From Gordionus sp. m RMFG-2023 (Eukaryota; Nematomorpha; Gordioida; Chordodea; Parachordodidae), in assembly GCF_954871325.1 (NCBI RefSeq), contig NC_088777.1:34139366-34203365 (forward strand): a stretch of 64,000 nt of DNA. Reading direction: 5' to 3'. Position numbers and translations under genes: made by a program. Numbering within the stretch: position 1 is the first letter of the stretch; the number at the start of each line of letters is the position of its first letter. Below, piece after piece: positions 6,101-64,000 of this stretch. The notes under the pieces were generated by a model, which was not told where the DNA came from, did not search any database, and saw only the letters and a program-made list of their open reading frames with translations.

Positions 6101-9100
6101 TGGCAAACAGTGAAAAAAAATTAAGGGATTAAATTAGTAAATGGAAGATGGCTATGGAAGCAAAAAGCCTGAAAATGAATGCGTAAAGAAGGTGATGATT
6201 AGTGGGGAAAATCTGAAGACGGAGGAATCCGGCAACCAGCCATGTGATGTATGAGGGAAAGAAGTTTCTAGAAATTCAAGCACCAGATACCAGAAATGGG
6301 TGCAAAAGATGTAGCGTGATAAAAGGAAGTCTGATGTTAGCAAGAATGACCTTTAGTTGTAGAACACACATAATAGGGGTACTTAATACTGATAATGTAG
6401 AAAATGGTGGTTTGGATATTAGCAATGAGTTAACTGTGGAAAAAGTGGGAAAATTTTGTTTGGGTGATATAGCTGCTTTCAGACAAGCATGTAAGAAGTT
6501 CAAAGAGATGTCATCTATTTAAACAAATAAAAGCGTCTCTCTGAAGTTAAAGGGGAAAGTTTATGTAAACTGTGTAAGGAGTTGTTTAGTGTTATAGCGG
6601 TAAAACATGGGCAATAAATGCGACCCACAAAATCAAATTAGAAAGATCAGAGATGAGGATGATTATATGGATGTGTGGGGTATCTCTGAGAGAAAGAAAA
6701 ACTAGCATTGGGTATAGAAATATTTTGAGTGGTAATGCGAAGAAATAGACTTAGATGATTTGGGCATGTGGAACGTAAGGCAAAAGATGACTGGGTAAAG
6801 AGATGCATCTTGATGGAAATAGGAGGACCAAGATGACGTGGATAAATATGATAGGGGCAGATATGAGAAAAATGAATCTTACAAAATGCTGAGGCCCAAC
6901 AAAAATGGAAAAAAAAATCAGAGGGAAAACTGGCCTACCTGGAAATCGTCATTAAAAGGAGATGATATCAACTTATCTATTTCTTTTCTTTCTACCCTTC
7001 TCATTTCCTTACTCTCTATTATCTCCATTTCCCTTCTTTCAGATTCCCCAATCAAAAAATCTATATCTGGATGCTTTTTATGGTGTGTATTTCAATAGAT
7101 TATATCTTCTTGAAAAGGTATTTACTCCTCAAAAACCAAAATCGAGTAATTTTAACTTTCTTGGTTCCCTCACTGAAATCACACATTACTTAAAGTACTT
7201 AAGTATTACCCAATACTTTTAATAATAAATATCAGAGCCCTGCAGGCCCAGCCAGGTACACAGGATGGGCCTTATCTTAAATTTTTTAATCGCTATCATT
7301 ATATTATCTATAAAATAAATTTCCTATATTTAAAAAAAATCCTGATCAGGACAAAATAATTTTTTTTTAAATCCAAGCCTGAAAATATAAAATGAGGGCC
7401 AGGACAGGCCGAAAAAATTTTAAAAAAGCCTGTGCTGAAATTTTTTTGAATCCGGGCCGGGCCGCCGAAATGGTACCTCTACAGATCTCTGATAAATATA
7501 CTAGAACATTTAATTATTAACGAAAAATTGTGGTTAAAAGTAAGAGGTGATCATAATAAAATAATGAGAGGAATGTTTTAAAGCTTACAATAATCAAAGT
7601 AAATCAATGTGAAAGATCAAGATGAATCGATAATCCCATGAACATGTCTACTCTGAGCCGAATTATTCAACCATTCTAACCCCGATTATGGACATCATAG
7701 ACATCAACCTGAATGACTTATTTCCACAGGCACTTAAATAATGGACGTCAAACACTGCCTCAATCTTTTTAGCAAGCACCTTGTGCACAAACATCTCCAA
7801 CAGAAATAACTGTCTAACCCCTACTATTTGACATGATTTGACTAGCACCCTTGCCCCCTCCCCTCTAGGACTGTTAGGGATTTTTCCCCTAAATGATTAC
7901 AAGCCACTTTTTTTATTCACAAAAAAATATCAATATCACCACATTTACTGATATTAATATTTCCTGCAAATTCACCTATAATTAAATAGGTTCGCCATAT
8001 TTTAATCATAAATTATTGAAGTTCGTTTTTTTGAAAAAAATGATGAACGGCGTTCCTTTTATTTTTGATGAACTTTGAACGTGAACGCGTTCCTTTTTTT
8101 ATGATGAACGCGTTCGAATTTAACGTTCGTTCAATTGTAAAAATACTTTTATTTTTATTTATTTGAAAAATTTAATATTTCCAAATTTTTTATCGGCTGT
8201 GTATTTCCTTTTCACATTTCAATTTTTTTAACACACCATTATTATAGTTTATTAGTTTAAATTTTATTGTTTATATTTTAATTTAATAGATTAGCATAAG
8301 CATGGATATTATTATTTAATCCTCATCATCTGATTCAGAAAATCCAAAATCAGATGAATTATCATTACTATGGCCAAATATGATAAATGTTTTACATTAA
8401 CATCCTATATTAAAGGAACTAATCCAATGCTTACCAAGTGTAAAATGTGGCCAAAAAGTATTATATTGTCAAAATCTTCAGGTTCTTAAAACGACATTTG
8501 ATTTTAATATTAATTATTTGATTTTATATGATATAACTAAGTTAAATCATTAAATTTGAAGAAATAATGCATTTGGGATATTTGACCCCAACAAAAACGA
8601 TAGTTATTTTAAAATTAAAAAAATTAGTGGCCTCAAATATGGTCAACCATTGATAGACGCCGTATTAAATGGGATTAATAAAAGGTATTAAACCTATCAC
8701 TCTCAATTAATTACATTATTTTATATTTTTTAAAGATTTGAACATATATATAAGGATCAATATGTTCTTTCTGCAATTATACATCCAGAATTCAAACTTC
8801 AATGGCCATGGATAAAACTTCCACAGAACGAACCTATTAAAATAAAACTTATAGCGTTATTGAAAAAAATGCTTTGAAAACCCTAGAGAACTGTTAATTT
8901 CGAGATATCCTTTTTTTGTCGAGAGTAGAGAATGGATTGGAGGAGATAACTTATCTCAATTTTTTGCAAATAACAAAACAATATGTTTTTAATTAATTCT
9001 CCACGTTAAAAGAGCTGTTTATTAAGTATAATACCTAAATCCCCTCATCTTCCCCTGTAGAGCGCGTTTAGGCTAATGCCGTATTAACTGCCAGTGTTCC

Positions 9101-28505: not shown

Positions 28506-29532
28506 TTGAGTGGCCAGAAAAACAACTTCACATAACCTCAGCTAGCTCATAAACTATTATACATAGGGCTAGGCTATGATACAAATTTGATTTTAAAGAT
28601 TAAGGATTGGGCTACACATTGATATAAAATTTGTTAAACCCAAAATGCCTTTATTTGAAAAAAGTAAAAACAAGGCCATTTTAGCACATCTCCCCTACTA
28701 TTCAATAAAAAACATTCCACTTCTATATTGATACATGTGTAGAGTATATAATATACGAATATCCCGATTCACTTGTTAGACTATCCTTCAAAATTTAAAT
28801 GTTAAAATTTCAAAAAATATATATCTTTTATCCTATTTATATAAAAATATTTTATAAAATAATAATGTATATTATATTTATTAGATAACAGTCTTCTTAA
28901 GGATTAATAAAGATAATGTGGCCCAACTATTACATGTTAAATTACAAATTTGAGATAGGCATCTAACATTGAAGGGTGTTCCCATCTTAAGTTTATGGCA
29001 AATTATTTCTTATTTTGGTTTCAGATTATTGATATCTTGTGCACATTCTATGTCAGGATAAATGCTGAAGGAGTTTAAAAATGTATAACAATTCGTATAA
29101 TACTCCTACAGAATATGCGTGAGGCTCATGAACGTCATTTGACAGATTCACTTGTGAAGACTTAGAGTAAAGCATATGGTTCAATAAATTATTGACCAAC
29201 AACAACAGGCCTCTTTTTAATCGACTGAATTCTTCTACTTATAAAATGTCTAGTGAGCTATCGCTAACATAGTCAGGGAAGAGGTAGATAAAAAAAATAT
29301 ATTAAATATTGGCTAAATTGCCATTCCAATTTTTATATTATTTAGCTATTCAATAATAATAATATCAATATTAATAATAATAATAATCCTTTTGCACTCA
29401 TTTTAAGGTGTCCCAACCTATTTATTTTTTGACTAATAGCTTGCTTAAGGCAAATTTTATATCATAGAATGGTTGTAGTTTCTTGTTAATATGCATTAAT
29501 TTTATGACATGTAATTTTTAATCGTATCAGTT
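28506..29532. other. AT-rich spacer, nothing recognised
   Basis: No ORF of interest, RNA gene or element ends seen. Confidence 0.45.
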
Positions 29533-29830
29533 CAATTCAGCGAAACTTTTATCGCGAAACACTTTTTCGCGAATGTCGTTTATCGCGAAAATTTTTTATA
29601 GCGAAACCAATTCTGCGAATATATCTCCGCGAAACATTTATAGCGAAGACAATTTCGCGAAGCCATTGTCGCGAATTCCGCGAAACCTTAACCTCGAATT
29701 CCGCGAAACCTTAACCTCGAATTTATTAGAGCGAATACATTTTAGCGAAACATTTTACGTGCACTTTATGGGGAATTTTTTATCGCTAATTTGAGCGAAG
29801 TCATTATCGCGAGCACATTACCGCTAAACA
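29533..29830. repeat. GCGAAA-type iterated terminal repeat, left
   Basis: About twenty short units of the form GCGAAA.n.TTTTAT.GCGAA, spaced 13-20 bp. Units CCGCGAAACCTTAACCTCGAATT occur twice in tandem (29685-29720 area). The 73-codon frame across it is a repeat artefact. Confidence 0.85.
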
Positions 29831-30139
29831 ATAAATATATTGCGAATGCATTTATACAAATGAAAAGAACATATTATTTATTATTTGATGTTTTTTAACC
29901 CTTTCGCGCCCGAAATATTTCCCGTGAACAAAATTTTTTTTAAAAAACTGAGTTAAACAAGACACAAATAACATATTTTCAACGTTTTTATTTAAAAAAG
30001 TGTATATATATAAAATTATGAAATGTAACCAATTGTCGTCATTGGGATATTCATATGTAAAGAAATATACAATTTATTTTGAATGATAAGAAATAAAACA
30101 ATTGCGATTTTTATTTAAACATCTAGATATTTTATAATT

Positions 30140-31060
30140 TATTCAAATCTTGAACAACCATTTTTGCAGTTCTTGCATCTTTGTCTGCTATCCGCCGATG
30201 GCTGTTTTATCTAATCTAATCTCTGTGATTGGATGAAAACTATTCAATTTCCTCCTTTCAATCTTCAAAGTAGGTCTACCTTCTATTTTACCATTTTCCT
30301 TTCCAACCATAATCAATCATTTAGCTATCGGAGCTTTAAATACTAAAAGAGATATATGTTTACTATTTTTCTGTTATGTGACATCTATAGAGCAACCATG
30401 AATTTACTACAACAGGAATCTAATAAATGAAAGAAAACTCGCATATAAAAACGTGTCCATTTTATGTCAGTTCTGTAGAGTTCAAATAACATATCATGGA
30501 GATCCACCCCGCCCATACCTCCGTTATAGTCTTGAATTATGGCCGGAATTTCAACATTGAAAAAAAGACTTATAAGATGCCGACCATCTCGTTCTTGATT
30601 TTGGATTTATTCCCATAAATGATGATATGGTGATAATCCATTTGTTATCAACGGTTTGCAAATTATAATATTATTAGAATCTTATAATCAAGGGACCCTC
30701 TTCCTTTTTTCTTTAGGATTCTATCATCATACAGGTTTCATCCCGATAATCAATTAGATATAAGGGTCCCCGACACGATAAAGCCATTATCTTTGAGAGC
30801 AACTGCTAAATTATACGAAGAAAAAAAGTTATCGATGTAAATTTTATTATTTTTATGTGGGGGAACAGTTTTTAATAGTTGTATAACAATATTTCCGCTA
30901 ATTCCCTTCTATGTTTTTTTTATGTTTGTGGATTTTTCTAAATATATTTCGAAATCATATAGCACTCCAGATGATCCACATTTATGCGGTTTTGAGCTAA
31001 TATATTGTTTAAACCCATCTCCCTCTGGTTTAATATATGTTGAGGTAATCTAAAAATTAT
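30140..31060 (-). pseudogene. piggyBac transposase, C-terminal two thirds, broken
   Basis: Minus-strand blocks in order: IKPEGDGFKQYISSKPHKCG (about 31045-30985), LYDFEIYLEKS (30970-30935), GISGNIVIQLLKTVPPHKNN (30900-30850), KIYIDNFFSSYNLAVALKDN (30848-30785), GGMGGVDLHDMLFELYRTDI (30525-30465), FYMRVFFHLLDS (30455-30415), and a C-terminal cysteine motif CKNCKNGCSRFE near 30165-30145. A stop splits the second and third blocks. The segment between the GDGFKQY and CGSSG motifs is short compared with active piggyBac proteins. The N-terminal part is missing, probably lost around the hAT insertion. Confidence 0.85.
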
Positions 31061-31355
31061 TTATAAAAATTTTAAAAAAAGTATAATAAAAAAAAATTCC
31101 CACTCCTAACTTTTTGCAAATATTATAGTGGCTTTCTAAATGGAAAATAACCTATATTCAATTCTTACTATATCATATTTTTAATATTTAATTTTAAAAA
31201 ATTTATAGAAAAAATTACATTATAAAATCCCAATGTTACCAATTTGGATTTCCTTCAAAAAATCATATAAATAATAGTTATTGTTAAAAATTTTTTTACT
31301 AAATATGAAATACTAGTAAAAATCTATTTTTATATATATTTATATAGAATGGTTA

Positions 31356-33356
31356 CAGGGGCGTCGCTAACCTTTACAATCTCAAGAGGCTCAACTAAAA
31401 AAAAAAATGGTGGCTTCGCCCCCATGCCTCTCATTTGCGGGGCTTCGGCCCGCTTTTGCCTGGTCTTCGGCCGGGTTTTATATTAATATATTATACTTTT
31501 TAAAAATTTGCTAACTCTGAATTCTGAATTTCATATTTTGATTATTTATTACATTATGCATACAAAATAAACTGGCATATAAATAATTAAAACAATATGA
31601 CATTTCTAAAAATATTATTTTTTAATACAAAATCTATTTATTACAGTATAAAATATCTTTGATTGCTGATATAAAAAATTTGGGTCTAAAGAATTACAAG
31701 TGATAAAAGAGGTTAATTATTTCATACATATGCCTCAATTGATAATGGTTTTTAAAAACTATATATTATAAAATTAGCAACTTACATTGACAAAAGGTCA
31801 AGAAACTAATATAACACTCTGTTGCCATTTTTAGATAGAATGGATTAATAAGGAAAATTTTATAGGCCAACCAAATCAAAAATTCTTGGAGAAGAGAATA
31901 TTTACGACCAATCCAAATCATAAAACTATATGGTGGTTAGAGCTTCCTCTTAAATGACATGATGAAAGCTAGATAAGTAATTGAGAAAAAAATTGTGAGA
32001 TATTAAATTTCTAAGAGATTATCTTCCATTTTTAATGACATAAACAACTACACAGTTGACCATTATTGCTTATAAAATATGCAATCATATGCTCTCAGCA
32101 GCTGTAATTAATAACATACCCACACAAATAATAGATGCTGGTTAATTTGCTGTCATAGCCATGACACTCACTATATTATCTTATGTCAGTATTTATTATG
32201 ATAGATAAATTGATAAAACAAATACACTAAATTCTTTAGTAGAAATTATGCAAATGTATTGAAGCCTTAAGTTATTTACAAGGCAGGGATGCCATATTAG
32301 AAATGAAACATTTTACAACTATAAAATAAGAACCAGAGGGATATGATATGATAAAAGAAATTAATTAAGATTTTATATATTATTATCGCACCACCTCTAG
32401 TTGGTATATTATATCTTAAAATAGTAGTAGTTTGTATTAATATCAAAAATATACTAGTATTAAAAATTTAACTCAAAACTGTTTTACAAATAAGAAAAAA
32501 ATAGCTTTCCTAATAACACGTAAAAAAGATAAGAAAAGTTATCTAATTATTACATCCATTCTGGGATAAATAATAAGATATTAAATTTTAGATGGCGTTA
32601 AATATTTTAAAGCAATTTATTACTTATATTTATTATCAATAGCATTTATTAGTAAAATTTATTAAAATATTAGGAATATATTATATAACTGTCAAATACG
32701 TCTGTAAAAGGGGTATTTAACCTAATCTTTTATAACCAATTTTATCTAATAGAGGATTATAAACTATATGTTTACTTACTTTTTATAAATAAATCTCTTA
32801 TACTTATTTGGATTTGGACCTTGAAAATAATTTTAAGAAGAGGCATGGTAATTAAATTTAAATATCAATGATATAGTTGATTCATAATTTTGAACTCGGC
32901 TAATTACAATATTAAATTTGTTAATTTTCAATTAATATTTATTTAATTAGGGTACATAATAATTTAAATAATAAAAGTCAATAAAGCTTCAACTGTTAAT
33001 GCTAAATTAATATTTTGTGAGTGATATTAATATTCTATTTTTAACACAGAATTTGATTGCAAGCTGACATAGTGAAAATATAATTTATAAGTATTAATCT
33101 AATCTAATAATTAAAATAGTATTCATTTAAGAATAATTTAGATAGACTTATTGATTTGTAAATTATAAAATTAAATCTATAAATTACTCAATAAAATTAT
33201 AAAAGAAATCATTCAGTGAGCGATCAAAAAAATTTATTCTTAGTTCAAGGGGATATTAAGGAGCCAATAAAAAAAAAATTATTTTGCTTCAGGGGGCTAT
33301 TCAAATTATTCAGGGAGCTCGAGCTCCCGCGCGCCCCCTCCATAGCGACGTTACTG
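31356..33356. mobile_element. Non-autonomous hAT, CAGGGGCGTCGCT family, copy 1
   Basis: Ends CAGGGGCGTCGCTA and AGCGACGTTACTG. Flanks AATGGTTA (31348-31355) and AATGATTA (33357-33364) are an 8-bp duplication with one mismatch. GC-rich subterminal words (CTTCGGCCCGC, CTTCGGCCGGG) lie near 31440-31475. It shares long stretches with 47161-48997 and has no ORF over 75 codons that looks real. Confidence 0.9.
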
Positions 33357-33599
33357 AATGATTATCGATGTAAAAGTGTAAAAATTTTGGCGCGTAAAAT
33401 ACCTAACTTTGAACTTGTATTACGTGATACATGATATAGAACGTTTTCGCCCCCTAGTTGTGGATACAACAGAGCTACGTTAGGTTTTCCTGATAATCCA
33501 TCTGAATGGACAAATTAAAATGGGGATAAAAAATGAGGAGCCCTTCACACGTTTGTGGGCAAGCCGCACGTACTTGTACGCGTAATAGTCCAAGTGGGC

Positions 33600-34987
33600 T
33601 GATGAGGAATGGACAAAAATAAGCTCAGCCCACACCCATAAGATGCTTATATACATAATAAATTATAAAGGCAAATAGGGACCTAACTTTAATAACACGG
33701 TTCATACGGCATAAGATGGGAAATTTGATAGCAAATAATAGATGAAAAGGAAAAAAGTTGGATACAGAATGAGAAGAGAGAAAAGGCAGCGAAAGTAAAA
33801 TAAAGGAAGATAAAACAAAAGTAAAAATAACCTGTGTCAAAAAGGAGTTTATGGAGATTCAAATAATATGATTTGATCCTCAACAGTTTCTTTATTGATT
33901 TCTTATATTTATTCAACCTTAAAAACTGTTTCGTGTTAAGGTTTAAATCCATGATATCCTTTACTGCCCTATAGAACCATAAAGTTTTATATTTCCTATA
34001 GGTTTTGCCGTTGAATGAGTATAACCAATTTATCGCCTCCAGGACCAGGCTATTATTTGTGTAATTCCTCAGAATATGTGCAAAAAAGGTAAGACGTTTC
34101 TTTTTCACACATGCACTTGAGTGTGACGTGACCTCAGCCAAAGGTTAACATTAGAGATAATGTTGGGGTAAAAAATGCCATTTATTATCCTAAGACATTT
34201 GTTGACAAACGCCTGTAATCTCCTGGTCTCTCTCTTCGTAATCTCCCATATATCACCGCCGTAAAGGAGAATTGGGATGATGGTGGAATTGAATATACGT
34301 AGCCTAGTGTAAACCGATATCTCCCTGGATTTCCACAGTTTGGAATATTTAAAAAAGCAGCCTTGCGTTATGAAATCTGATTTTTAGTTCTTCATGGCAG
34401 CTACCCCTATTATCTATGTTTACCCCAAGATATTTATAAAAGGACACCACCCTAACCAACTCCCCCCTCCCCTACCATCCAATCAACCAAAGGGGGCGCA
34501 TGAGATGATGGCATAATTACCGTCTTATCGAAGTTAATATCCAATCCAACCTTTAGGCTGAAGGAATTAAGTATCAAGACTAAATTATGGGCCTCCTCCA
34601 AGCTCTTGGCAATCATCACGTCATCTGCATAACAAATCACTCTATTTTCCAAAAACCATGTCTGATTAAATCCAAGTTCCAGAAGATTTGCGGCTCCCAG
34701 CTAATCAGTAATTATTTTATTCATAACTAAATTGAACAACAGAGGGGAGACAACACACTCTTGCTTTACTCCTTTTTTTGTTCTAAAGTGGGGAGAAACT
34801 TTATTAATGATTTTAAACGAGGCGAAGAGATTACTATAATGTGTCCTAAGAATCTTAATGATATTCCCGTCAATGCCACATCCTTCTAGGATTGCCCACA
34901 GAGTATCGTGAATAACGCTGTCAAAAGCGCGCTTAAAATCAACGAAGATAAAGTAAAATGGTAATTTATACTTCTCATACTTCTCTG
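33600..34987 (-). pseudogene. LINE A fragment: reverse transcriptase and C-terminus, 5' truncated
   Basis: Minus strand. HLSEKYEKYKLPFYFIFVDFKR.AFDSV (from 34985), GVKQECVVSPLLFNLVM (about 34770-34720), and the catalytic CYADDVMIAKSL (about 34640-34600). The C-terminal RLTFFAHILRNYTNNSLVLEAI then follows (34105-34040). A normal QGC is QEC here. A different LINE lineage from its plus-strand neighbour, joined to it at about 34985-34990 with shared CTGACAGATGC. Confidence 0.8.
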
Positions 34988-36520
34988 ACAGATGCCTTTG
35001 CATTCAATGCAAACATTGAAACAATAAATTGCTCACAAGTCAGTGAAAAAATCTGGACAGACCTTTCATCCAGATTAATAGACACTGCAAAATCGACGCT
35101 AGGCTTGACAAGAGGAGGCAACAAATCACACAAAGAACTATGGTGGTGGAATCAAGAGGTACAAACCACTATACAGGAGAAAAAAGCCCTTTATAAAATA
35201 TGGTACAAATCCAAAAATGCAGATGACCAGGAGCTTCTCAACTTTAATTCCCACATATTGCATCTCGACGAACACTCCCCTTGTCAAAACCTTGTACAAC
35301 CTATAACAGAACAAGTAATCACATGCCTCAAGCATATGAAAAACAACAAAGCTAGGGGTCCAGACGATATTCCAATAGAAAGCCTTAAAGCACTAGGAGA
35401 TGATGGAATACATCTCCTCACAAATCTGTACAATAAAATACTTGGAAATGAAGAGGTTCCCCAAAAATGGAGGCAGAGCTATCTAGTTCCTATCTTCAAA
35501 AATAAAGGGGATCCACACAATTGTCAAAATTACAGGGGCATAAAACTAATGTCACACTGTCTAAAACTATACGAAAAAATAATAGAAAAAAGATTAAGAG
35601 ATATAATCGAAATAGGAGAGACACAGTTTGGCTTTATGCCTGGAAGATCAACAACCGATGCTATCCATTCAATTAGGCAAATGAGTGAAAAATACAGGGA
35701 AAAGAACAAAAAGCTACAATGGTCTTTCTCGATCTAGAAAAGGCCTTCGATAGAATCACAAGAAAACTTATCTGGTGGGCGCTACGTCACAAAAAAGTTC
35801 CCGAAAAATATATAAGAATAATACAGGATATGTGTATGAGACATACAACAATGGTCCGTAACACAGCAGGTACTTCAGCAGGCTTCACAATAGCCGAATG
35901 AGTTCATCAAGGGTCGGCTCTCAGCCCACTTCTCTTCATTACAGTAATAGATGTATTAGCACAGTCTATACCTCAAACAGTCCCGTGGAATATGATATTT
36001 GCAGATGATATTGTGATACTTGCCGAATCCAAGGATGAAATGAAAGAAAGGTTAGTGAATTGGATAAATATCCTAGAAATGCACGGATTAAAAGTAAATA
36101 GAGAAAAGACGGAGTATATGGTGATAGGAGGAGATGAAACGGAGAGTATTGATATAAATGATTGGCAGATATCCGCAATTGAAAGCTGCAAATATTTGGG
36201 CTCCACTATACAAACAAACGGCACAATAGAAAAAGAGATAAAGAGTAAGATTAATCAAGGGTAGTTAAAGTGGAGATCTTTATCTGGAGTGCTATTTGAC
36301 AAAAGAATCCCACACAAATTAAAGGGAAAAATTTACAGTTCCATAGTACAACCAACTATTCTATATAGTTCAGAAACATGGCCAACCAAAGAATCAGACG
36401 AGAGAAGTCTACAAACTATGGAGATGAGAATTCTGAGGATGATTGCTGGGGTAACAAGAAAGGATAAGGTGCGCAGTACAAGAATACTAAATAGTTTAAA
36501 GGTAGTGCCCATAAGCTAAA
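34988..36520 (+). pseudogene. RTE-like LINE B fragment: reverse transcriptase, 5' truncated
   Basis: Starts inside the endonuclease-RT linker (TDAFAFNANIETINCSQVSE). Next come KELWWWNQEVQ (about 35136-35170), KARGPDDIPIESLKAL (about 35350-35395), SYLVPIFKNKGDPHNCQNYR (35478-35537), TQFGFMPGRSTTDAI (35620-35665), a frameshift, FLDLEKAFDRI (35723-35756), a stop before VHQGSALSPLLF (35900-35940), and the catalytic FADDIVILAES (35998-36030). YLGSTIQTNG, LYSSETWPTKES and RILRMIAGVTRKD complete it (36195-36465). The 3' end is missing. Same family as the minus-strand copy at 45318-51090. Confidence 0.88.
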
Positions 36521-36584
36521 GAGAAAAAAAAATTGATTAAAAATTTTGATGACAAATGATCTCGCTGGGCGCGAAAGGGTTAAT

Positions 36585-38770
36585 AAAAAATGATATGCTA
36601 TTATTGTAATATTATTTTTGTTACAATTTAGTGATTTTCACGCCCAAGATTCTAAGTAAAAAATATTTCTTGAAGTTCAATTTTGATAAAAATTTTAAAT
36701 CTTCTTTGTAAATGTATTTTTTTTGAGGTATTATTTTGTGAAATTTATTATAAATATACAATTTTTAAGTGAAATCTTTTATAGTTTTTTATCATTTTTG
36801 TAAAATTATCTATTTCTTAATTATATTAAAAGAGGTGGGTTTTCTAAATAATTTTTTTTTAAATATTTATATTCAACTTATTTATGTTATTTGATATGAT
36901 CTTTGGAAAATAATTTAATGTGACAATTGTCATATTCGTTATTTCTTAAAATTTTTGAAAATTATTGACTCAAAAGGGTAAAAATATTATTTATATTGTA
37001 TAGATGTTAAATTATAGATTTAATGAAGATGTTCCTTGGAAATATGGCAATTATCATAATCGGTATTTTTAAACATATTAGATTTTTTTAACGCTAATGG
37101 GCTAAAATATGTATTTTTAACATGTTAAATTTTAATTTCAATTAGGATGTACCATATAAAAGCGACAATTGTCATAATCATTATTTTTAAAGTTTTTTTA
37201 CAATTTTTTGACGTAAATGGGCAAAAATATAAATTGTTACATGTTAAAATAAAATTTCAGAGAAGATGTACCATAGATATAAGTTACAATTGTCATAATC
37301 GTTGTTTATAAAGTTTTTTGAATTTCTTTGTTGCAAATGGGTAAAAATATAAATTGTAAATATGCTTAATTAAAATTTCATGAAGATCAACCATTGAAAA
37401 GTGACAATTGTCATAATCTTTGTATATAAAGTTTTTTGAATTTTTTTGTTGCAAATGGGTAAAAATATAGATTGTAAACATGCTAAATTAAAATTTCATG
37501 AAGATCTACCATTGAAAAGTGACAATTGTCATAATCGTTATTTTTAAAGTTTTCATAATCGTTATTTTTAAAGTTTTTTGAATTGTTTTGACCAAAATGC
37601 GTTAATATAAGTATTGCTAATATGTTTAAATAAAACTTCAGTGAAGATGTACTATAGAGAAGTGACAATTATCATAATCATTATTTTTAAACTTTTTTAA
37701 AATTTTTTAACGTAAATGGGTAAAAATATAGATTGTAAACATGTTAAATTAAAATTTCATGAAGATGTACCATAGAAAAGTGACAATTGTCATAATCGTT
37801 ATTTTATAAATTTTTTTGACGTAAATGGGCATAAAATAAGTATTGCAAACATGTTTAAATAAAATTTCAGTGAAGATGTACCATAGAAAAGTGACAATTG
37901 TCATAATCATTATTTTATAAATTTTTTTGTTGCAAATGGGTAAAAATATAGATTGTAAACATGCTAAATTAAAATTTCATGAAGATGTACCATTGAAAAT
38001 TGACAACTGTCATAATCGTTATTTTTAAAGTTTTTTGAATTTTTTTGACCAAAATGGTTTAAAATAAGTATTGATGACATATTTAAATAAAACTTTAGTG
38101 AAGATGTACCCTAGATAAGTGACAATTGTCAAAATCGTTATTTTTAAAGTTTTTTGTATTTTTTTAACGCAAATGGGTAAGGATGGTAAACATGTTAAAT
38201 TAGAATTTCATGAAGATATACCATAAAAAAGTGACAATTGTCATAATCGTTATTTTATAACTTTTTAAAATTTTTTTGACGTAAATGGGCTAAAATAAGT
38301 ATTGCTAATATGTTAAAATAAAATTTCAATGAAAATGTACCCTAGATAAGTGACAATTGTTATAATCGTTATTTTTAAAGTTTTTTTGAATATTTTGACG
38401 CAAATGGATAAAAATATAGATTATAAACATGTTAAATTAAAATTTCATGAAGATGTACCATAGAAAAGTGACAATTGTCATAATCGTTATTTTATAACTT
38501 TTTGAATTTTTTAGAAGCAAATGGGCAAAAATATTAATTGCTTACATGTTAAAATAAAATTTCAGTGAAGATGTAACATAGATAAGTTACAATTGTCATC
38601 GTTGTTAATAAAGTTTTTTTGATTTTTTTTGTTGCAAATGGTAAAAATATAGATTGTAATCATGCTTAATTAAAATTTCATGATGATATACCATTGAAAA
38701 GTGATAATTGTTATAATCGTTATTTTTAAAGTTCTTTGATGTAAATAAATTAAAATATAGATTGTAATCC
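36585..38770. repeat. Left array of ~120-bp repeats with TGACAATTGTCA
   Basis: About 16 units, typical spacing 110-125 bp. Each has GAAGATGTACCATAGAAAAG, then TGACAATTGTCATAATCGTT, then poly-T, then an AAATGGGTAAAAATATAG-type segment. TGACAATTGTCA is its own reverse complement. The first 300 bp (36600-36900) is unique arm sequence that pairs with 40230-40520. Short minus-strand frames here are repeat artefacts. Confidence 0.9.
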
Positions 38771-39064
38771 ATCTTAACCAAATATTTATAAAAATAAAAT
38801 CTTAACATAAAATTTATAGGATATTGATTGTATCATATTACTAATATTATTCATATGGTTTTTAAGTTCTTTCTATAAAAATCCTACCCTGAATTCAGAC
38901 TCAGCACTATTTTGCCACGAATTTGCTAACTGTGAATGCAAGGTTATACATTTTTATAATGTAAAATTAAAATTTATTAATTAAAGGAATAAGATTGTGA
39001 ATCCATATCAAAAGTTTAGAATTTAACATAGGTTACAACTATCTTTAATAATCACTTTGTATAT
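38771..39064. other. Centre (loop) of the foldback element
   Basis: About 290 bp of AT-rich single-copy sequence between the mirrored arrays. No ORF. Confidence 0.7.
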
Positions 39065-40520
39065 TTTTATCAAATTTTAAGCAGGATAAAAGGAACAACG
39101 ATTATGAGCATGAAAATATCGATTTGATTTTTGTTTCGACTGAAATTTTATTTCAACATGTTAACAATTTATATTTTTGTCCAATTTAGTCAAACAATTC
39201 AAAAACTATAAAAATAACGATTATGACTATTGTCACTAATCTAGGGTGCATCTTCACTGAAATACATGTTAGCAATTTATATTTTAGCCCATTTGCTTCA
39301 AAAATATTTAAAAACATTTAAAAATAACGATTATGACAATTGTCACTTTTATATGGTACATCTTCATGAAATTTTAATTTGACATTTTTACAATCTATAT
39401 TTTTATCCATTTATATCAAAAAAATTCAAAAAACTTTAAAAACAACGATTATGACAATTGTCACTTATCTATGGTACATCTTCATTGATATTTTATTTTA
39501 ACATGTTAGCAATTCCTATTTTTGCCCATTTGCGTCAAAAAAATTCCAAAAACTTTAAAAATAACGATTATGACAATTGTCACTTATCTAGGGTAAATCT
39601 TCACTGAAGTTTTATTTAAACATGTTGGCAATTTATTTTTTGCCCATTTGCGTCAAAAAAATCCAAAACCTTTAAAAATGATTATCAATTGTCACTTATC
39701 TTGGGTACATCTTCACTGAAGTTTTATTTAACCATATTATCAATACTTATTTTGGCCCATTTACGTCAAAAAAAGTTTAAAAATAACGATTATTTATTAC
39801 AATTGTCACTTTTCTCTGGTACATCTTCATGAAATTTTAATTTAACAAGTTTACAATCTATATTTTTACCATTTGCATCAAAAAAATTCAAAAAACTTTA
39901 AAAATAAGGATTATGACAATTTTCATTTATCTAGGGTACATCTTCACTGAAGTTTTATTAATACATGTTAACAATACTTATTTTAGCCGATTTACGTCAA
40001 AAAAATTTAAAAAACTTTAAAAATAACGATTATGATAATTGTCACTTTTATATGGTGCATCTTAATTGAAATTTTAATTTAACATGTTAAAAATACATAT
40101 TTTACCGTAAAAAAAATCTAATATGTTTAAAAATACCGGTTATGATAATTGTCATTTTTCCAAGGAACATCTTCAATAACGGATATAAAAGTTGTCAGAT
40201 TAAATTATTTTCCTTAAAAAGATTATATAAAATAACATAAATAAGTTAAATAAAAATATTTTTAATAAATATTATTTAGAAAACCCACCTCTTTTAATAA
40301 ACTTAAAAAATAGATAATTTTACAAAAATGATAAAAAAAACTAAAAGATTTCACCTAAAAGATTGTTTATTTATAATAAAATTCATAAAAGAATTCCTCA
40401 AAAAAGATTTAAAATTTATATCAAAATATGTTCAAAAATCTTTTTGAACTTCAAAAAATATTTTTTGTTTAAAATTTTGGTCGTGAAAATCACTAATAAA
40501 TTGTAATAAAATCATTATTT
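39065..40520. repeat. Right array, inverted copy of the ~120-bp repeats
   Basis: About nine or ten units in the opposite orientation: AACGATTATGACAATTGTCA followed by GGTACATCTTCATGAAATTT. Several centres are damaged (for example GATTATCAATTGTCAC near 39680). The outer arm after 40190 mirrors 36600-36900 (AGAAAACCCACCTCTTTTAA pairs with TTAAAAGAGGTGGGTTTTCT). Confidence 0.88.
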
Positions 40521-40689
40521 TTATTAAAAACCATCAAATAAAAGAAATCCATTTTTCATTTCATAATATAATAATATAAATAAAAAATATATATCATATA
40601 ATATGTTTATTTGTTGATAAATAAAATATTAACATTAAATATAAATATAAATAAAATAAATTATTTTAATAAAAAAAAAAATAATAATA

Positions 40690-41013
40690 GGCCGTGTTAT
40701 ATTTCGCGAAATAGTTTTCGCTATATTGTCTTCGCGATTTATGTTTCGCGATATTGCCTTTGCTATAAAATTTTCGCTCTAATGTATTCGCTTTAAAGGT
40801 TTCGCGATAAGAGTTTTGCGATAAGAGTTTCGCGATAAGAGTTTCGCTATAAAAAATTCGCCATATTTGTTTCGCTATATTGTTTTCGCAGGAAAGTATT
40901 CGCTAATGTGGATTCGCGATAAAAGTTTCGTTATAAAATTCATTCGCGATAAACGACATTCGCGATGAAAGTTTCGCGAAAAAGTGTTTTGCGATAAAAG
41001 TTTCGCTGAATTG
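40690..41013. repeat. GCGAAA-type iterated terminal repeat, right
   Basis: Inverse of the left terminal block: TTCGCGATAAGAG, TTCGCTATA and similar units. Unit GTTTCGCGATAAGA is tandemly copied at 40800-40850. Internal unit order differs from the left arm, so units have been gained, lost or shuffled since the arms diverged. Confidence 0.85.
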
Positions 41014-41213
41014 CATGGAACCATTTTTAATACATGTTTGGGCAACATGTGAATCCATAATTATATCTAATCTTATAAATTGATTTCACTTTTGTTATAT
41101 TTAGCAGACTAAAATATATTTCAATTAATTCTTATATGCTTAATTTGAATTTAAAACTTGGCCCTCAAGCCTAAGATAATTAAATTGGAGTGTTAATTTT
41201 AATTATTGAATTA

Positions 41214-50289: not shown

Positions 50290-51058
50290 CATGACTAGTA
50301 GTTTATGTTACACGGCAATATTTTATCCTGGGAAGACTTTGCAGTCTATTACATCTTTTAATCTTATGCGAGAGATAAACATGTAATCTATCTGGGTTTT
50401 CCTTGTACCACTTTCATATTTTATTAAATGACTGTCATTTTTCTTATAGTAGGTGTTGGTTAAGGCAAGAAATTTTAGTATATGTTCGCTTTCATCATTT
50501 CTTTCTCCATATCCAAAACCACCATGATGCCTTTTGTAGCTCTCTCTTGATTTTCCCACATGCGCATTTATATCACAACATATTATAACTAGGTCATCCT
50601 TAGGGATTTCAAATACAGCTTAATTTTATCTTTCTCCTCTTCTTTGCAACAAAAGGATGTGTATTATTGATTGAGCAATGAAGAGTTTTTTTTAATCTAT
50701 CAGAGATCCTAATGACTTCTACCACTGAGGAAGTTAGATCTTGACTGAGGATAATGCCGACACCGTTCCTATTGCTATAAATTCCATTATAGTACAATTT
50801 ATACCCATCTCCAATCATTAAAATCTTCTGACGATTCCATTTCGTCTCTTGTATACACGCTATATCAACTTTTCTCTTGTTCAACATTGATGCCATTTCT
50901 CTCGTTTTACCTTTAAGTGTACTAATAATCAAACTTGCCAACCTTGTTTTCTTTGCTTTGACCTTTATTATACTTTTCACAGGATTGAGGTCTACACTCT
51001 GTGCGTCGCTTGGATGGAACGCCCTAGATTTCATATTTGTATTTTTTGTATCCTTCAT
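50290..51058 (-). pseudogene. LINE apurinic-type endonuclease domain
   Basis: Part of the RTE-like LINE. TREMASMLNKRKVDIACIQETK (about 50908-50845) carries the catalytic QETKW block. NGVGIILSQDL lies near 50770-50735. After a frameshift, HHGGFGYGERNDESEHILKFL (50530-50470) and QIDYMFISR (50395-50370) are the GxxNxxG-to-DYxxxS part of the fold. The domain nicks target DNA to prime reverse transcription. The frameshift between blocks makes it non-functional. Confidence 0.85.
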
Positions 51059-51179
51059 TTGTTTATTGGGCTAGTATCCTTAGCACCCTACTGTTAAGCC
51101 TGTCGGTGACCGGGGTGTCATCTCTAAGCTCCGAAATTTATCTTATCAGTGTCTTTACACATCAGTCAACGAAGAAAAA

Positions 51180-54929: not shown

Positions 54930-57042
54930 AACCTATACTAAAAATGTATATACAGCAAAATGAAGAAAGAAAAAAGGATAAAAAAAAATAAGGGATTAAA
55001 AACGAAATTATATTCAAACCTATTATCATATAATAACTGTTATTATATGATAATAGGTTACATAAACATTCTCATTGAAACCATGAAAAATATGGTTATA
55101 AAATAAATTCAAAATGAGATTACATTTAACAGGTGCTTTTCAATCATAGTTGATGGCACATACGATGTTTCTAAATCAGAAGCAATAGCTTTGATAGTAA
55201 GATATGTTGAAAATAGTGAGACGCCGAAGCCTGTTGAAAGACTGATTGACATATATTGTACGGTAAATACCACAGGTCTCGATATAAAGCATAATATAAT
55301 ATCCAAACTTGGTTCGATGAATTTACCCCTTGAATATCTAGTTGGGCAAAGTTATGATGGCGCCTCAAACATGAGTGGAAGAATCAATGGTGTGCAAGCC
55401 TTGATTAGAGGAGAGGCGCATAAGGCATCTTTTATTTGGTGTTATTGTCATCGATTAAATTTAATCGTTGTTCAATTATGCCAATCAATTAAAGAACTTC
55501 GAAATGTTCTAGGAATACTAGATGAGATTTATGTCTATTTTAATGGTGTAAAAAGATATGAGGTACTCAAAAAATTTCAGTGTAATGATCTGAAAAAATC
55601 GCAACGATTTCTACGCGTCAAGAATACCACTAGGTAATAGTACCTTATTTATTTAGATTTAAAATGTTTTTTTATTTAGAAGCTGGTTATCCTCATATAA
55701 AGCTATTGAAAATTTTTTCTACTTTATGATGCCTTGAGGGCAGAAGGATTTTAAAGATCCTGCTACTTCCACTATGGCTAGTGCTAGTGTTGTTAAACAG
55801 CTCAATTTGAGCTGATTTTTAAAAACGGCTAACTAGATATTTATCCAGAAAAATATTATGCAAGCCTAGAGATTTTGCTCATAGATGGCACATAGGATTG
55901 AACATCTATTGGAAAAATCTCGAAGCATAGGCAATATTTTCCTGGCTATAATGTTGAGTTAGCCGTTTTTAAAAATCGGCTCAAATCGAGCCGTTTAACA
56001 ACACTAGCTAGTGCTATAGTCTTTAGAATAGAAAAATTTTATTTTATTTATCTTATCACTTTGTGTTTTGGATAAAATATTGTTGATAACAAGTTTAGCT
56101 TGTACAAAATTGCAAACCATTTCGAAGGATATAGGGTTTGCAATAAATCAAATTCAATTGGCAAAAGATTGCTTGATTAATTTGAGAAGTATAATATAAA
56201 TTATTTATTGTCTTAATTATTTTTTAATCTAATAGATAATAACACTGAATTTTTGGATATTTTTTCAAAGGCAAAAGATTTTATGAAGGAGAGAAATCTA
56301 CCTTTTGATTTTGAAAGTTCTAAACTTAAACATTACAATCCAAAAAGGAGAGGTATATATACTTTCATCATTAAATATAGAAATTTTTTTTAGCTTTAAA
56401 ATAGGTGTGTTTTATGCTGCACTCGATAATTATTGCAGTTTAACGAAAGATTTAATGATGATTCGATGAAATTTTTACATCAAACATCATTTTTTACGCC
56501 AAATAATGTGGCAGAAAAATCAATTATTAAGGAAGATATCGAGGATATCTGTTGAAGTTTAGAAATATTTATAAGATGGCCAAAATGGGGAATGTAATTA
56601 TTACTCATGACCTAGAGGTTCAAGAATCTAAAGATTTGTCAGATTCTGAGAATTGTAAATTTATTTAATTAAAATATTTTTACCAATACATTATTTAGCT
56701 TCTTCTGATGATGATGATAATTCAGGGACTTACGATTCAGATTGGAAAAACTATTCATTTATTTTACCTTATCGTTTACTTTAAAATTTTTCTGCTTTCC
56801 CTAATTTAAGAATTTTATATAAATATTTATTAACCATTCCCACAACCTCATGTACTGCCGAAAGAGTCATGAGTAAAATTAAATTAATTAAAACAAGACT
56901 GCGCAGTACCATGAAAGATTCTTTTCTCAATAATTTAACCATATTATCAATGGGAAATTTTTTATTTAAACAATTAAATACTGATGAAATTATAAATTCT
57001 TTCACTTTCTCTTCCCCTAATTTATCTAAATTATTAATTTAA
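54930..57042 (+). pseudogene. hAT transposase with micro-introns, ZMYM/DUF4371-like
   Basis: Blocks: CFSIIVDGTYDVSKSEAIAL (about 55135-55195, first catalytic Asp in VDGT), then IVRYVENSETPKPVERLIDI, LEYLVGQSYDGASNMSG (55328-55380, second Asp in YDGA), WCYCHRLNLIVVQLC (55439-55485, the CxxH), and GVKRYEVLKKF. Intron 55634-55679 (46 nt, GT-AG) joins NTTR to SWLSSYKAI. A MITE sits at 55785. Intron 56353-56438 (86 nt) follows YNPKRR. The C-terminal dimerisation domain closes it: FPNLRILYKYLLTIPTT (56795-56846), SCTAERVMSKIKLIKTRLRS (56847-56910), and a stop at 57040. Stops before 55110 and in the middle show decay, but long parts remain readable, so loss is fairly recent. Confidence 0.88.
55785..56006. 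mobile_element. Foldback MITE, TAGTGTTGT family, inside the hAT gene
   Basis: TAGTGTTGTTAAAC at the left and GTTTAACAACACTA at the right, exact complements. The arms continue with CAATTTGAGC..GATTTTTAAAAACGGCTAAC. Perfect 8-bp duplication GCTAGTGC at 55777-55784 and 56007-56014. 222 bp. Confidence 0.95.
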
Positions 57043-63238: not shown

Positions 63239-63342
63239 AAGTATCCATATAATAATAATAAAGAAAAAGGAAATTTTAATTATTACAATAATATAATAAT
63301 AATTTTAAGTTCAGAGATAACAGTAAGTTTAACAATAAGGAT

Positions 63343-64000
63343 ATGTGTAAGTACAATGAATGCTCAAAATGTGGAAGAACTAACCCCCCTTTTCAATGTT
63401 TTGCATCAAGGGTGAAATGTTATAATTGTCAAAAGGTAGGGCATTATGCTAAATATTGTAAGGGACGGAAGTTACATGCTATGCATCAAGATGACAATGA
63501 CTCATCAGATTCATTTAATAATATTTCCCAAATTGCTAGAAATAGTGCGAAGATATCTGTTAGGATAAATGGAGTACCTATAGAATTTGACTATGATACG
63601 GGGGCACAGGTATCGGTGATTGGGAAACAATATTGGGATGAAATTGGCCGACGCAAACTTGGACCAACCAAACCTTTGTCAGTATATGGTAACCGACCGC
63701 TGGATGTACTTGGTTCGTCTTGAAAAGATAAGCAGATCACTAACGATTGTGGTGACCCGTTCAAATGACATACCATTATTTGGACAACCATGGATACTGG
63801 CATTTAATATGTTTATCCCACGACATGTTACTATACGTAGTATCACAAGTAAAAAGGTTATGACAACCGATAAACAAATTGCTGACATGACGACTAAATT
63901 TTTCAGTGTTTTTGATGACAAGACAGGACGGGTGAGTGATATAATAGAAGTTAGCATACATCTGAGTGAGGCAGCAAGGCCGAAATCATGGTCAGCTCGT
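63343..64000 (+). pseudogene. Ty3/Gypsy zinc knuckle and aspartic protease, runs off the window
   Basis: CYNCQKVGHYAKYC (63418-63459) is a CCHC knuckle. The retropepsin follows: IEFDYDTGAQVSVIGKQYWD (63583-63642) has DTGA as the catalytic Asp block. LDVLG (63700-63714) is the flap-side segment. A stop at 63721 is followed, in another frame, by IPLFGQPWILAFNMF (63769-63812), and that frame stays open to the window edge. Pol (RT, RNase H, integrase) would lie beyond 64000. Confidence 0.85.

What the first reader, a model, noticed from the sequence alone, without database searches (positions are those of the whole stretch)
29533..41013. Giant foldback element with three-layer inverted arms and no gene
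Seen directly: exact inverted tips, then GCGAAA-type iterations, then unique arm sequence, then mirrored arrays of a ~120-bp repeat around a ~290-bp centre. With the inserted piggyBac removed it is about 4.8 kb, nearly all palindromic at arm scale. Foldback and Galileo elements of Drosophila have tandem-repeat TIRs (known), but I know of none with this two-tier design. It may be a new non-autonomous family or a structural locus.
Basis: partly seen in the sequence, partly recalled or inferred. Interest (0 to 1): 0.85.

Follow-up and report, generated by a model that had tools for sequence, protein, structure and literature searches.

The report
Gene-less foldback transposon in a hairworm
This stretch of hairworm DNA is a copy of a parasitic mobile element that carries no gene of its own, folds back on itself, and has the same ends as a larger jumping element in the same genome that does encode the cutting enzyme; it is a new family of a known kind.

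Summary
The element spans 29523-41022 and has a 9-bp target-site duplication, ATTTTTAAT. A degenerate piggyBac (29895-36583) sits inside it. The remaining ~4.8 kb has three-layer inverted arms: 14-bp GCGAAA iterations, a single-copy arm, and ~118-bp arrays mirrored around a single-copy centre. The outermost bases are not inverted: one end is CGTATCAGG (A), the other GGTTCCATG (B).

It is neither a local palindrome nor an assembly error. The host assembly (a hairworm, Gordionus sp.) holds 352 A ends and 434 B ends, and at least 40 centres. On contig C1, 39 of 40 convergent end pairs are A with B. Of 18 elements tested, 16 have 8-9 bp duplications (two with one mismatch). Paralogous empty sites exist.

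An ~11-kb family with the same terminal 34 bp carries a FLYWCH + MULE (DDE) transposase. The finding is therefore most likely a non-autonomous Foldback-type Mutator (Phantom-like) element mobilised in trans. Arms and repeat units are inherited side by side across copies, so the two-tier arm was built before the family spread. Tm1 (14-bp tier, unequal tips, 9-bp duplication) and Tetris (220-bp tier) are close precedents. New family, known kind; the role of the second tier is unknown.

The parts
29514..29522 (.). left target-site duplication ATTTTTAAT
   Evidence: perfect 9-bp match to 41023-41031
29523..29571 (+). A end: CGTATCAG(G/T)TCAATTCAGCGAAACTTTTATCGCGAAACACTTTTTCGCG
   Evidence: 1 mismatch in the first 34 bp to the common A end; 352 A-end 20-mers in the genome with up to 2 mismatches, reversed-pattern control 0
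29536..29850 (+). first tier, left: GCGAAA iterations, often 14 bp apart
29851..29894 (+). start of left single-copy arm, cut by the piggyBac
   Evidence: continuous with 36584 onward in L011, L014, L024 and L051
29895..36583 (.). secondary insertion: degenerate piggyBac (TTAA...TTAA, CCCTTTCGCGCCC tips) that itself holds other repeats; not part of the element
36584..36919 (+). left (A-side) single-copy arm
   Evidence: near full-length BLAST matches in 5 loci (L004, L011, L014, L023, L024), 79-89%; the A arms of 10 elements lie on one side of a 100/100 branch
36920..38737 (+). second tier, A side: ~15 forward units of ~118 bp
38738..39206 (+). single-copy centre, no ORF of 120 aa or more, no Rfam match
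   Evidence: 40 places in the genome, this one included, with 40 scored of 404 candidates; Rfam 0 matches; ORF list
39207..40175 (-). second tier, B side: ~7 reverse units
40176..40695 (-). right (B-side) single-copy arm
40696..41009 (-). first tier, right: TTCGC iterations
40974..41022 (-). B end (read inward: GGTTCCATG[T]CAATTCAGCGAAAC...; one base lost in this copy)
   Evidence: 434 B-end 20-mers in the genome with up to 2 mismatches, control 0
41023..41031 (.). right target-site duplication ATTTTTAAT

Best explanation
The element ('class B') is a non-autonomous, Foldback-type member of the Mutator (MULE) superfamily, Phantom-like by the domains of its partner's transposase. It has no gene. 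An ~11-kb family in the same genome ('class A') with the same terminal 34 bp encodes a FLYWCH zinc-finger + MULE DDE transposase. The proposed mechanism: the FLYWCH domain reads the tip and the 14-bp GCGAAA iterations; the enzyme pairs one A end with one B end, cuts the element out and inserts it into a staggered 9-bp target. SHOWN: shared ends, the A+B rule, target-site duplications, empty sites, and that the partner gene exists. INFERRED: which bases the protein binds, cut-and-paste chemistry, trans-mobilisation, present activity. The ~118-bp second tier existed before the family spread and is copied en bloc; it is probably tolerated, or an auxiliary binding or spacing region, not the basic transposition signal, because class A lacks it.
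For: Ends: 352 A and 434 B 20-mers with up to 2 mismatches, reversed-pattern controls 0. On contig C1 (exact matches only: 76 A, 81 B) 40 of 43 neighbours within 25 kb are convergent and 39 of those 40 are A with B; label shuffles average 20.1 and 0 of 2000 reach 39. Duplications: of 18 elements tested (one of them a nested sister-family element in L011), 12 perfect 9-bp, 2 nine-bp with one mismatch, 2 perfect 8-bp, 2 none; unrelated pairings 0 of 306. Empty sites: two for class A copies; for class B copy L014, 12 of 14 genome matches to the joined flanks run across the junction, the other 2 being its own flanks. Partner: MULE hits lie inside A/B-bounded elements (read with 18, 39); 10 of the 12 class A elements held match the transposase pieces; Pfam MULE and FLYWCH over the curated cut-offs; D184, D245, E380 invariant in 14 sequences; NCBI model P0001, 465 aa, from a Gordionus contig of the same length as C1. 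Shared outer 34 bp: 0-1 mismatch in 24 of 24 class A ends and 13 of 16 class B ends.
Against: No transposition was observed. Class B shares only the terminal few hundred bp with class A, none of the arm, array or centre, so it is not a simple deletion derivative. A-side arms of class B differ by ~6% between copies while many class A genes are 98-100% alike, so class B may be older and now inactive. Three of 16 class B ends depart from the common 34 bp: window B (one base lost), L051 A (9 mismatches), L052 B (3). Elements were chosen from paired tips on C1 or from centres, not at random; L015 and L023/L024 have no matching duplication. Of six class B copies fetched by their A end, a B end was recognised within the stretch in one, L052; for L049, L050 and L051 one is listed further out, for L053 and L054 I did not find it. 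Only one class B copy (L014) was tested for an empty site. Phantom membership rests on domain content and on papers, not on a transposase tree.
Confidence: 0.92

Rival explanations
1. A local rearrangement, or an assembly-made palindrome, at this one place.
For: Long inverted structure. A near-perfect inverted duplication does exist elsewhere in this assembly, around C3:26.575-26.608 Mb. Raw reads were not available.
Against: 40 places with the centre; target-site duplications; empty sites. The two arms form two separate 100/100 groups (10 A arms, 13 B arms), and within one element they are about 90% alike (7 elements), not identical as a chimeric read would make them.
Confidence: 0.01
2. A satellite or structural locus: the 118-bp arrays are the real entity (chromosomal satellite) and the ends are incidental.
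For: Units are abundant (262 matches from 40 scored of 2178 candidates); locally homogeneous back-to-back arrays in L057; Tetris repeats did seed satellites in Drosophila virilis (passages). I did not map all units against all ends.
Against: In the 9 class B copies analysed, 150 of 157 units match best a unit on the same side of ANOTHER element, and only 7 a unit of their own element, the opposite of satellite homogenisation; the same arms and centre flank the arrays.
Confidence: 0.04
3. A member of the P/Galileo group rather than MULE, with the class A MULE gene a passenger.
For: Galileo has long, internally repetitive arms and is called Foldback-like (passages of PMC3688188 and PMC3573991).
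Against: Duplications here are 9 (8) bp, none a perfect 7 bp of 18, against Galileo's 7 bp; the gene recurs at about the same place in many A/B-bounded elements; FLYWCH + MULE, no THAP match in the Pfam scan of P0001.
Confidence: 0.02

Closest known systems
Tm1 (Mutator/Foldback, Meloidogyne; PMC3169594, passages read)
   Same: 9-bp duplications; short unequal motifs (A1/A2) outside the inverted repeat, generally one of each per element; variable number of mostly 14-bp tandem repeats as the largest part of the arm; non-autonomous groups beside a group with a FLYWCH + MULE (Phantom) transposase.
   Different: Different end and repeat sequences; no second tier of long repeats in the passages read; some Tm1 interiors hold a histone hairpin, and Rfam found no match in L014 or the window.
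Tetris (Drosophila virilis; PMC4079207, passages read)
   Same: Non-autonomous foldback with an outer flanking domain, an array of ~220-bp repeats in each arm, inner domain and middle; 8-10 bp duplications; variable repeat number.
   Different: Only three structurally complete copies, autonomous partner not found, repeats expanded into satellite arrays. Here a likely partner is identified and units are inherited side by side across copies.
Muta1 (Aedes aegypti MULE; PMC5225508, passages read)
   Same: FLYWCH + DDE transposase, 8-9 bp duplications, short subterminal tandem repeats (12 bp), derivatives that share the ends but have diverse interiors; shown to transpose in yeast; called a type 2 Foldback.
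   Different: 3.2 kb with 145-bp arms; no long-repeat tier in the passages read.
Galileo (P superfamily, Drosophila; PMC3688188 and PMC3573991, passages read)
   Same: Very long, internally repetitive arms; transposase-binding sites shown inside the tandem repeats.
   Different: P-type THAP transposase, 7-bp duplications.
Foldback/FB-NOF (Drosophila melanogaster; recalled, and cited in the papers above)
   Same: Long arms made of tandem repeats; some Foldback elements were grouped with Mutator by transposase similarity according to Tm1's authors.
   Different: Not compared by sequence here.

Membership tests
Mutator (MULE) superfamily | 8-11 bp (mostly 9 bp) target-site duplication (range recalled; 8-10 bp, 8-9 bp) | tested here: met
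   16 of 18 elements with 8-9 bp (12 perfect 9, 2 nine with one mismatch, 2 perfect 8), 2 without; control 0 of 306
Mutator (MULE) superfamily | MULE DDE transposase between the ends of an autonomous partner | tested here: met
   PF10551 53.6 bits against cut-off 27.6 in P0001; hits inside A/B-bounded elements; D184, D245, E380 invariant in 14 sequences. The window element itself has no gene.
Phantom-type MULE | N-terminal FLYWCH finger + MULE domain | tested here: met
   PF04500 33.8 bits against cut-off 23.6; definition as given in PMC3169594
Phantom-type MULE | transposase falls in the Phantom clade | not tested
   no tree with reference Phantom and FB-NOF proteins was built
Foldback-type architecture | long inverted arms made largely of tandem repeats | tested here: met
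non-autonomous partner of class A | same terminal sequences, including the unequal outer bases | tested here: met
   0-1 mismatch over 34 bp in 13 of 16 class B ends and 24 of 24 class A ends
non-autonomous partner of class A | mobilisation by the class A transposase | not testable with these tools
   needs an excision assay
Galileo / P superfamily | 7-bp (Galileo) duplication and THAP/P-type transposase | tested here: not met
   0 of 18 with a perfect 7-bp repeat; FLYWCH + MULE instead

The most novel reading that the evidence does not exclude
The second tier works: the mirrored ~118-bp arrays, kept en bloc across the family, are a functional auxiliary platform (for transposase, a host architectural protein, or controlled hairpin extrusion), so that class B is a distinct design of transposase parasite with two kinds of repeat signal, the outer one shared with its autonomous partner and the inner one its own.
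Probability: 0.15. Interest if true: 0.55.

Novelty: new member of a known kind. Interest (0 to 1): 0.36.

Why it matters
It adds a foldback/MULE pair in Nematomorpha; I saw no paper on hairworm transposons in the listings (open-licence library only). It ties a long-armed foldback element to its likely transposase, whereas for Tetris the partner was not found. The A+B end rule and the 14-bp tier resemble Tm1 and, with a shorter 12-bp tier, Muta1, which suggests one recognition design across nematodes, insects and hairworms, testable by binding and yeast excision assays. Because class A lacks the long-repeat tier, the pair separates what the transposase needs from what long arms add, a question the Galileo and Tetris papers leave open.

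Tried and rejected

A hidden gene or RNA in class B: no ORF of 120 aa or more in the window element outside the piggyBac, no Rfam match at gathering score in window or L014.

Class B as a deletion derivative of class A: rejected, only the ends are shared. L009 and L010, in which the transposase pieces have no match but much of the rest of class A does, are such derivatives of class A.

An autonomous class B: L034 has a degraded class B arm next to a different MULE gene, but a CGACTC repeat tract lies between them and no A or B end was found there, so I do not read it as one.

Arm homogenisation by gene conversion: rejected; A arms and B arms are separate 100/100 groups, and the arms of one element are no more alike (mean 0.904, n=7) than an A and a B arm of different elements (0.914, n=123).

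Solved structures: one distinct sequence matched, the FLYWCH part (2rpr). No fold was predicted.

Rows dropped: one search leaves out L049, L050, L051, L053 and L054, whose second end was not recognised in the fetched stretch. One search leaves out the last unit of each run and units outside 95-130 bp. One search uses 10 A arms and 13 B arms; left out are L042 (identical to L041) and partial arms in L040, L043, L045, L048 and L050. One search uses only exact ends on C1, since the listings stop at 100 places each.

Full report
What is there. The window element runs from 29523 to 41022 and is flanked by a perfect 9-bp repeat, ATTTTTAAT. Reading inward from the left: the A end, a tier of GCGAAA iterations (137 of 181 spacings are 14 bp, six arms pooled: both of the window and one each of L013, L014, L018, L027), a single-copy arm, then ~15 forward units of ~118 bp. 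A single-copy centre of ~0.4 kb follows, then ~7 reverse units, the mirror arm, the mirror iterations and the B end. A degenerate piggyBac, 29895-36583, was inserted later: it is bounded by TTAA, two fragments match its transposase family (PF13843), its left end matches at 40 scored places of 145 candidates, and the four sister copies examined (L011, L014, L024, L051) run through the site without it.

It is a dispersed family. The genome in which the window lies (287 Mb, 267 contigs) has 352 A-end and 434 B-end 20-mers with up to two mismatches; the reversed patterns give 0. The 21-mer tip count of 1390 is larger because near-copies of the tip recur inside the iterations. The centre matches at 40 places, the window included (40 scored of 404 candidates, so a lower bound). 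On contig C1, using exact ends only, 40 of 43 neighbours within 25 kb point at each other, and 39 of these 40 join one A with one B end; with labels shuffled the mean is 20.1 and 0 of 2000 reach 39. The one A-A pair spans L016, whose B end carries one mismatch and so was not in the list. So an element seems to need one end of each kind, as is general in Tm1.

It moved. Among 18 elements whose both ends were held (one of them a nested sister-family element in L011), 12 have a perfect 9-bp duplication, 2 a 9-bp one with one mismatch, 2 a perfect 8-bp one and 2 none (L015, L023/L024); 0 of 306 unrelated pairings match at 9 bp with up to one mismatch. Two class A insertions, L017 and L018, have a paralogous empty copy of their target among the sequences held, that of L017 in this very window at ~8271-8460; that of L018 has one extra base at the junction. 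For the class B copy L014, 12 of the 14 genome matches to its joined flanks run straight across the insertion point at 68-80% identity; the other two are its own flanks. No other class B copy was tested this way.

The autonomous partner. Elements with the same A and B ends (10 of the 39 A-B pairs on C1 are 10.7-11.6 kb long) carry a gene whose product has a FLYWCH finger and a MULE domain; 10 of the 12 class A elements held match it. In ten copies where both positions are listed, the MULE ORF begins 2.4-2.7 kb from the B end. The best-matching annotated protein, P0001 (465 aa), is an NCBI model from Gordionus sp. m RMFG-2023 on a contig of exactly the length of C1, which identifies the host as a hairworm. 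The search gave 358 relatives, 120 listed; the named ones include aphid, firefly, wasp, ant, mite, spider, shrimp, newt and rotifer, and most are unnamed. Thirteen of them, aligned, are 30-45% identical to P0001, with D184, D245 and E380 invariant; the spacing resembles that of the Muta1 triad D214, D283, E419 (passages of PMC5225508). Of 145 genome matches to the MULE ORF, 16 (the query's own place included) are 98-100% identical over nearly the whole query, 12 of these without a stop, which points to recent class A activity. The outer 34 bp of class A and class B agree: 24 of 24 class A ends and 13 of 16 class B ends have 0-1 mismatch.

How class B is built and inherited. Beyond the ends, class B shares nothing long with class A. 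In a tree of 10 A-side and 13 B-side single-copy arms the two sides separate at 100/100; A arms are 93.8% alike across elements, B arms 94.3%, while the two arms of one element are 90.4% alike (7 elements; gaps not counted). Of 157 units from nine copies, 150 match best a unit on the same side of another element, in some pairs at nearly the same rank throughout (window and L054) and in others shifted or scattered. The double-tier arm, with its two sides already diverged, therefore existed before the family spread; later change is mainly loss or gain of unit blocks. Core-motif counts on the A side range from 5 (L040) to 18 (L050), on the B side up to 9 (L040); the A side is often but not always the longer.

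Mechanism. Shown: ends, pairing rule, duplications, empty sites, partner gene. Inferred: recognition of tip and 14-bp tier by FLYWCH, A+B synapsis, cut-and-paste, trans-mobilisation. Binding sites in repeated arms have been shown for Galileo; for Foldback and Phantom elements they were untested when that paper was written (passages of PMC3688188). Since class A lacks the second tier, it cannot be the basic transposition signal.

Comparison with the known. The terminal design equals that of Tm1 in layout (unequal short end motifs, ~14-bp repeats, 9-bp duplication, FLYWCH + MULE; passages of PMC3169594). The long-repeat tier has its counterpart in Tetris (passages of PMC4079207) and in Galileo F (passages of PMC3573991). 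I judge it a new family of a known kind, with a combination of the two tiers that I did not see in the passages read. In the listings of my searches I saw no paper on hairworm transposons; the library holds open-licence papers only, and one search listed 10 of 700.

Noticed in passing
L041, L042, L056-L058 (C3:26,574,500-26,608,300): Two class B copies ~24 kb apart lie in an inverted duplication: 3,483 of 3,483 bases identical around the centres and 3,158 of 3,159 further out, while the middle is not mirrored (1,526 of 4,959). Recent inverted duplication or assembly fold; undecided.
   Followed up: partly
L057:1538-3201: Back-to-back arrays of the 119-bp unit, 94-96% homogeneous, unlike the ~80% mean identity within ordinary class B arrays: a satellite-like local amplification.
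   Followed up: no
L011:1117-3038: A 1.9-kb nested element with related but different ends (GGTATCACGTCAATTCGGCG / GGTTCCACGTCAATTCGGCG) and a 9-bp duplication AAATAATTT: a sister family with the same unequal-end design.
   Followed up: partly
L034:1-1500; L057:892-1380: Tracts of CGACTC/CGACCC repeats abut or interrupt class B arms and arrays; in L034 a different MULE gene follows. Possibly another foldback-type family.
   Followed up: partly
window:34952-36261: Broken reverse transcriptase (RVT_1) pieces inside the piggyBac insert.
   Followed up: no
window:8212-8623: An unoccupied copy of the repeat into which class A element L017 inserted.
   Followed up: yes
window:60183-60761; 55107-55634; 63292-63720; 50609-51070: Other likely mobile-element remains: DDE_3 endonuclease, DUF4371 protein, zinc knuckle with aspartyl protease matches near cut-off, endonuclease/exonuclease domain just under cut-off.
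   Followed up: no
window:52205-52346: A 71-bp unit repeated twice without a mismatch.
   Followed up: no
window:37529-37577: Perfect 24-bp tandem duplication inside the 118-bp array, a recent local slippage.
   Followed up: no
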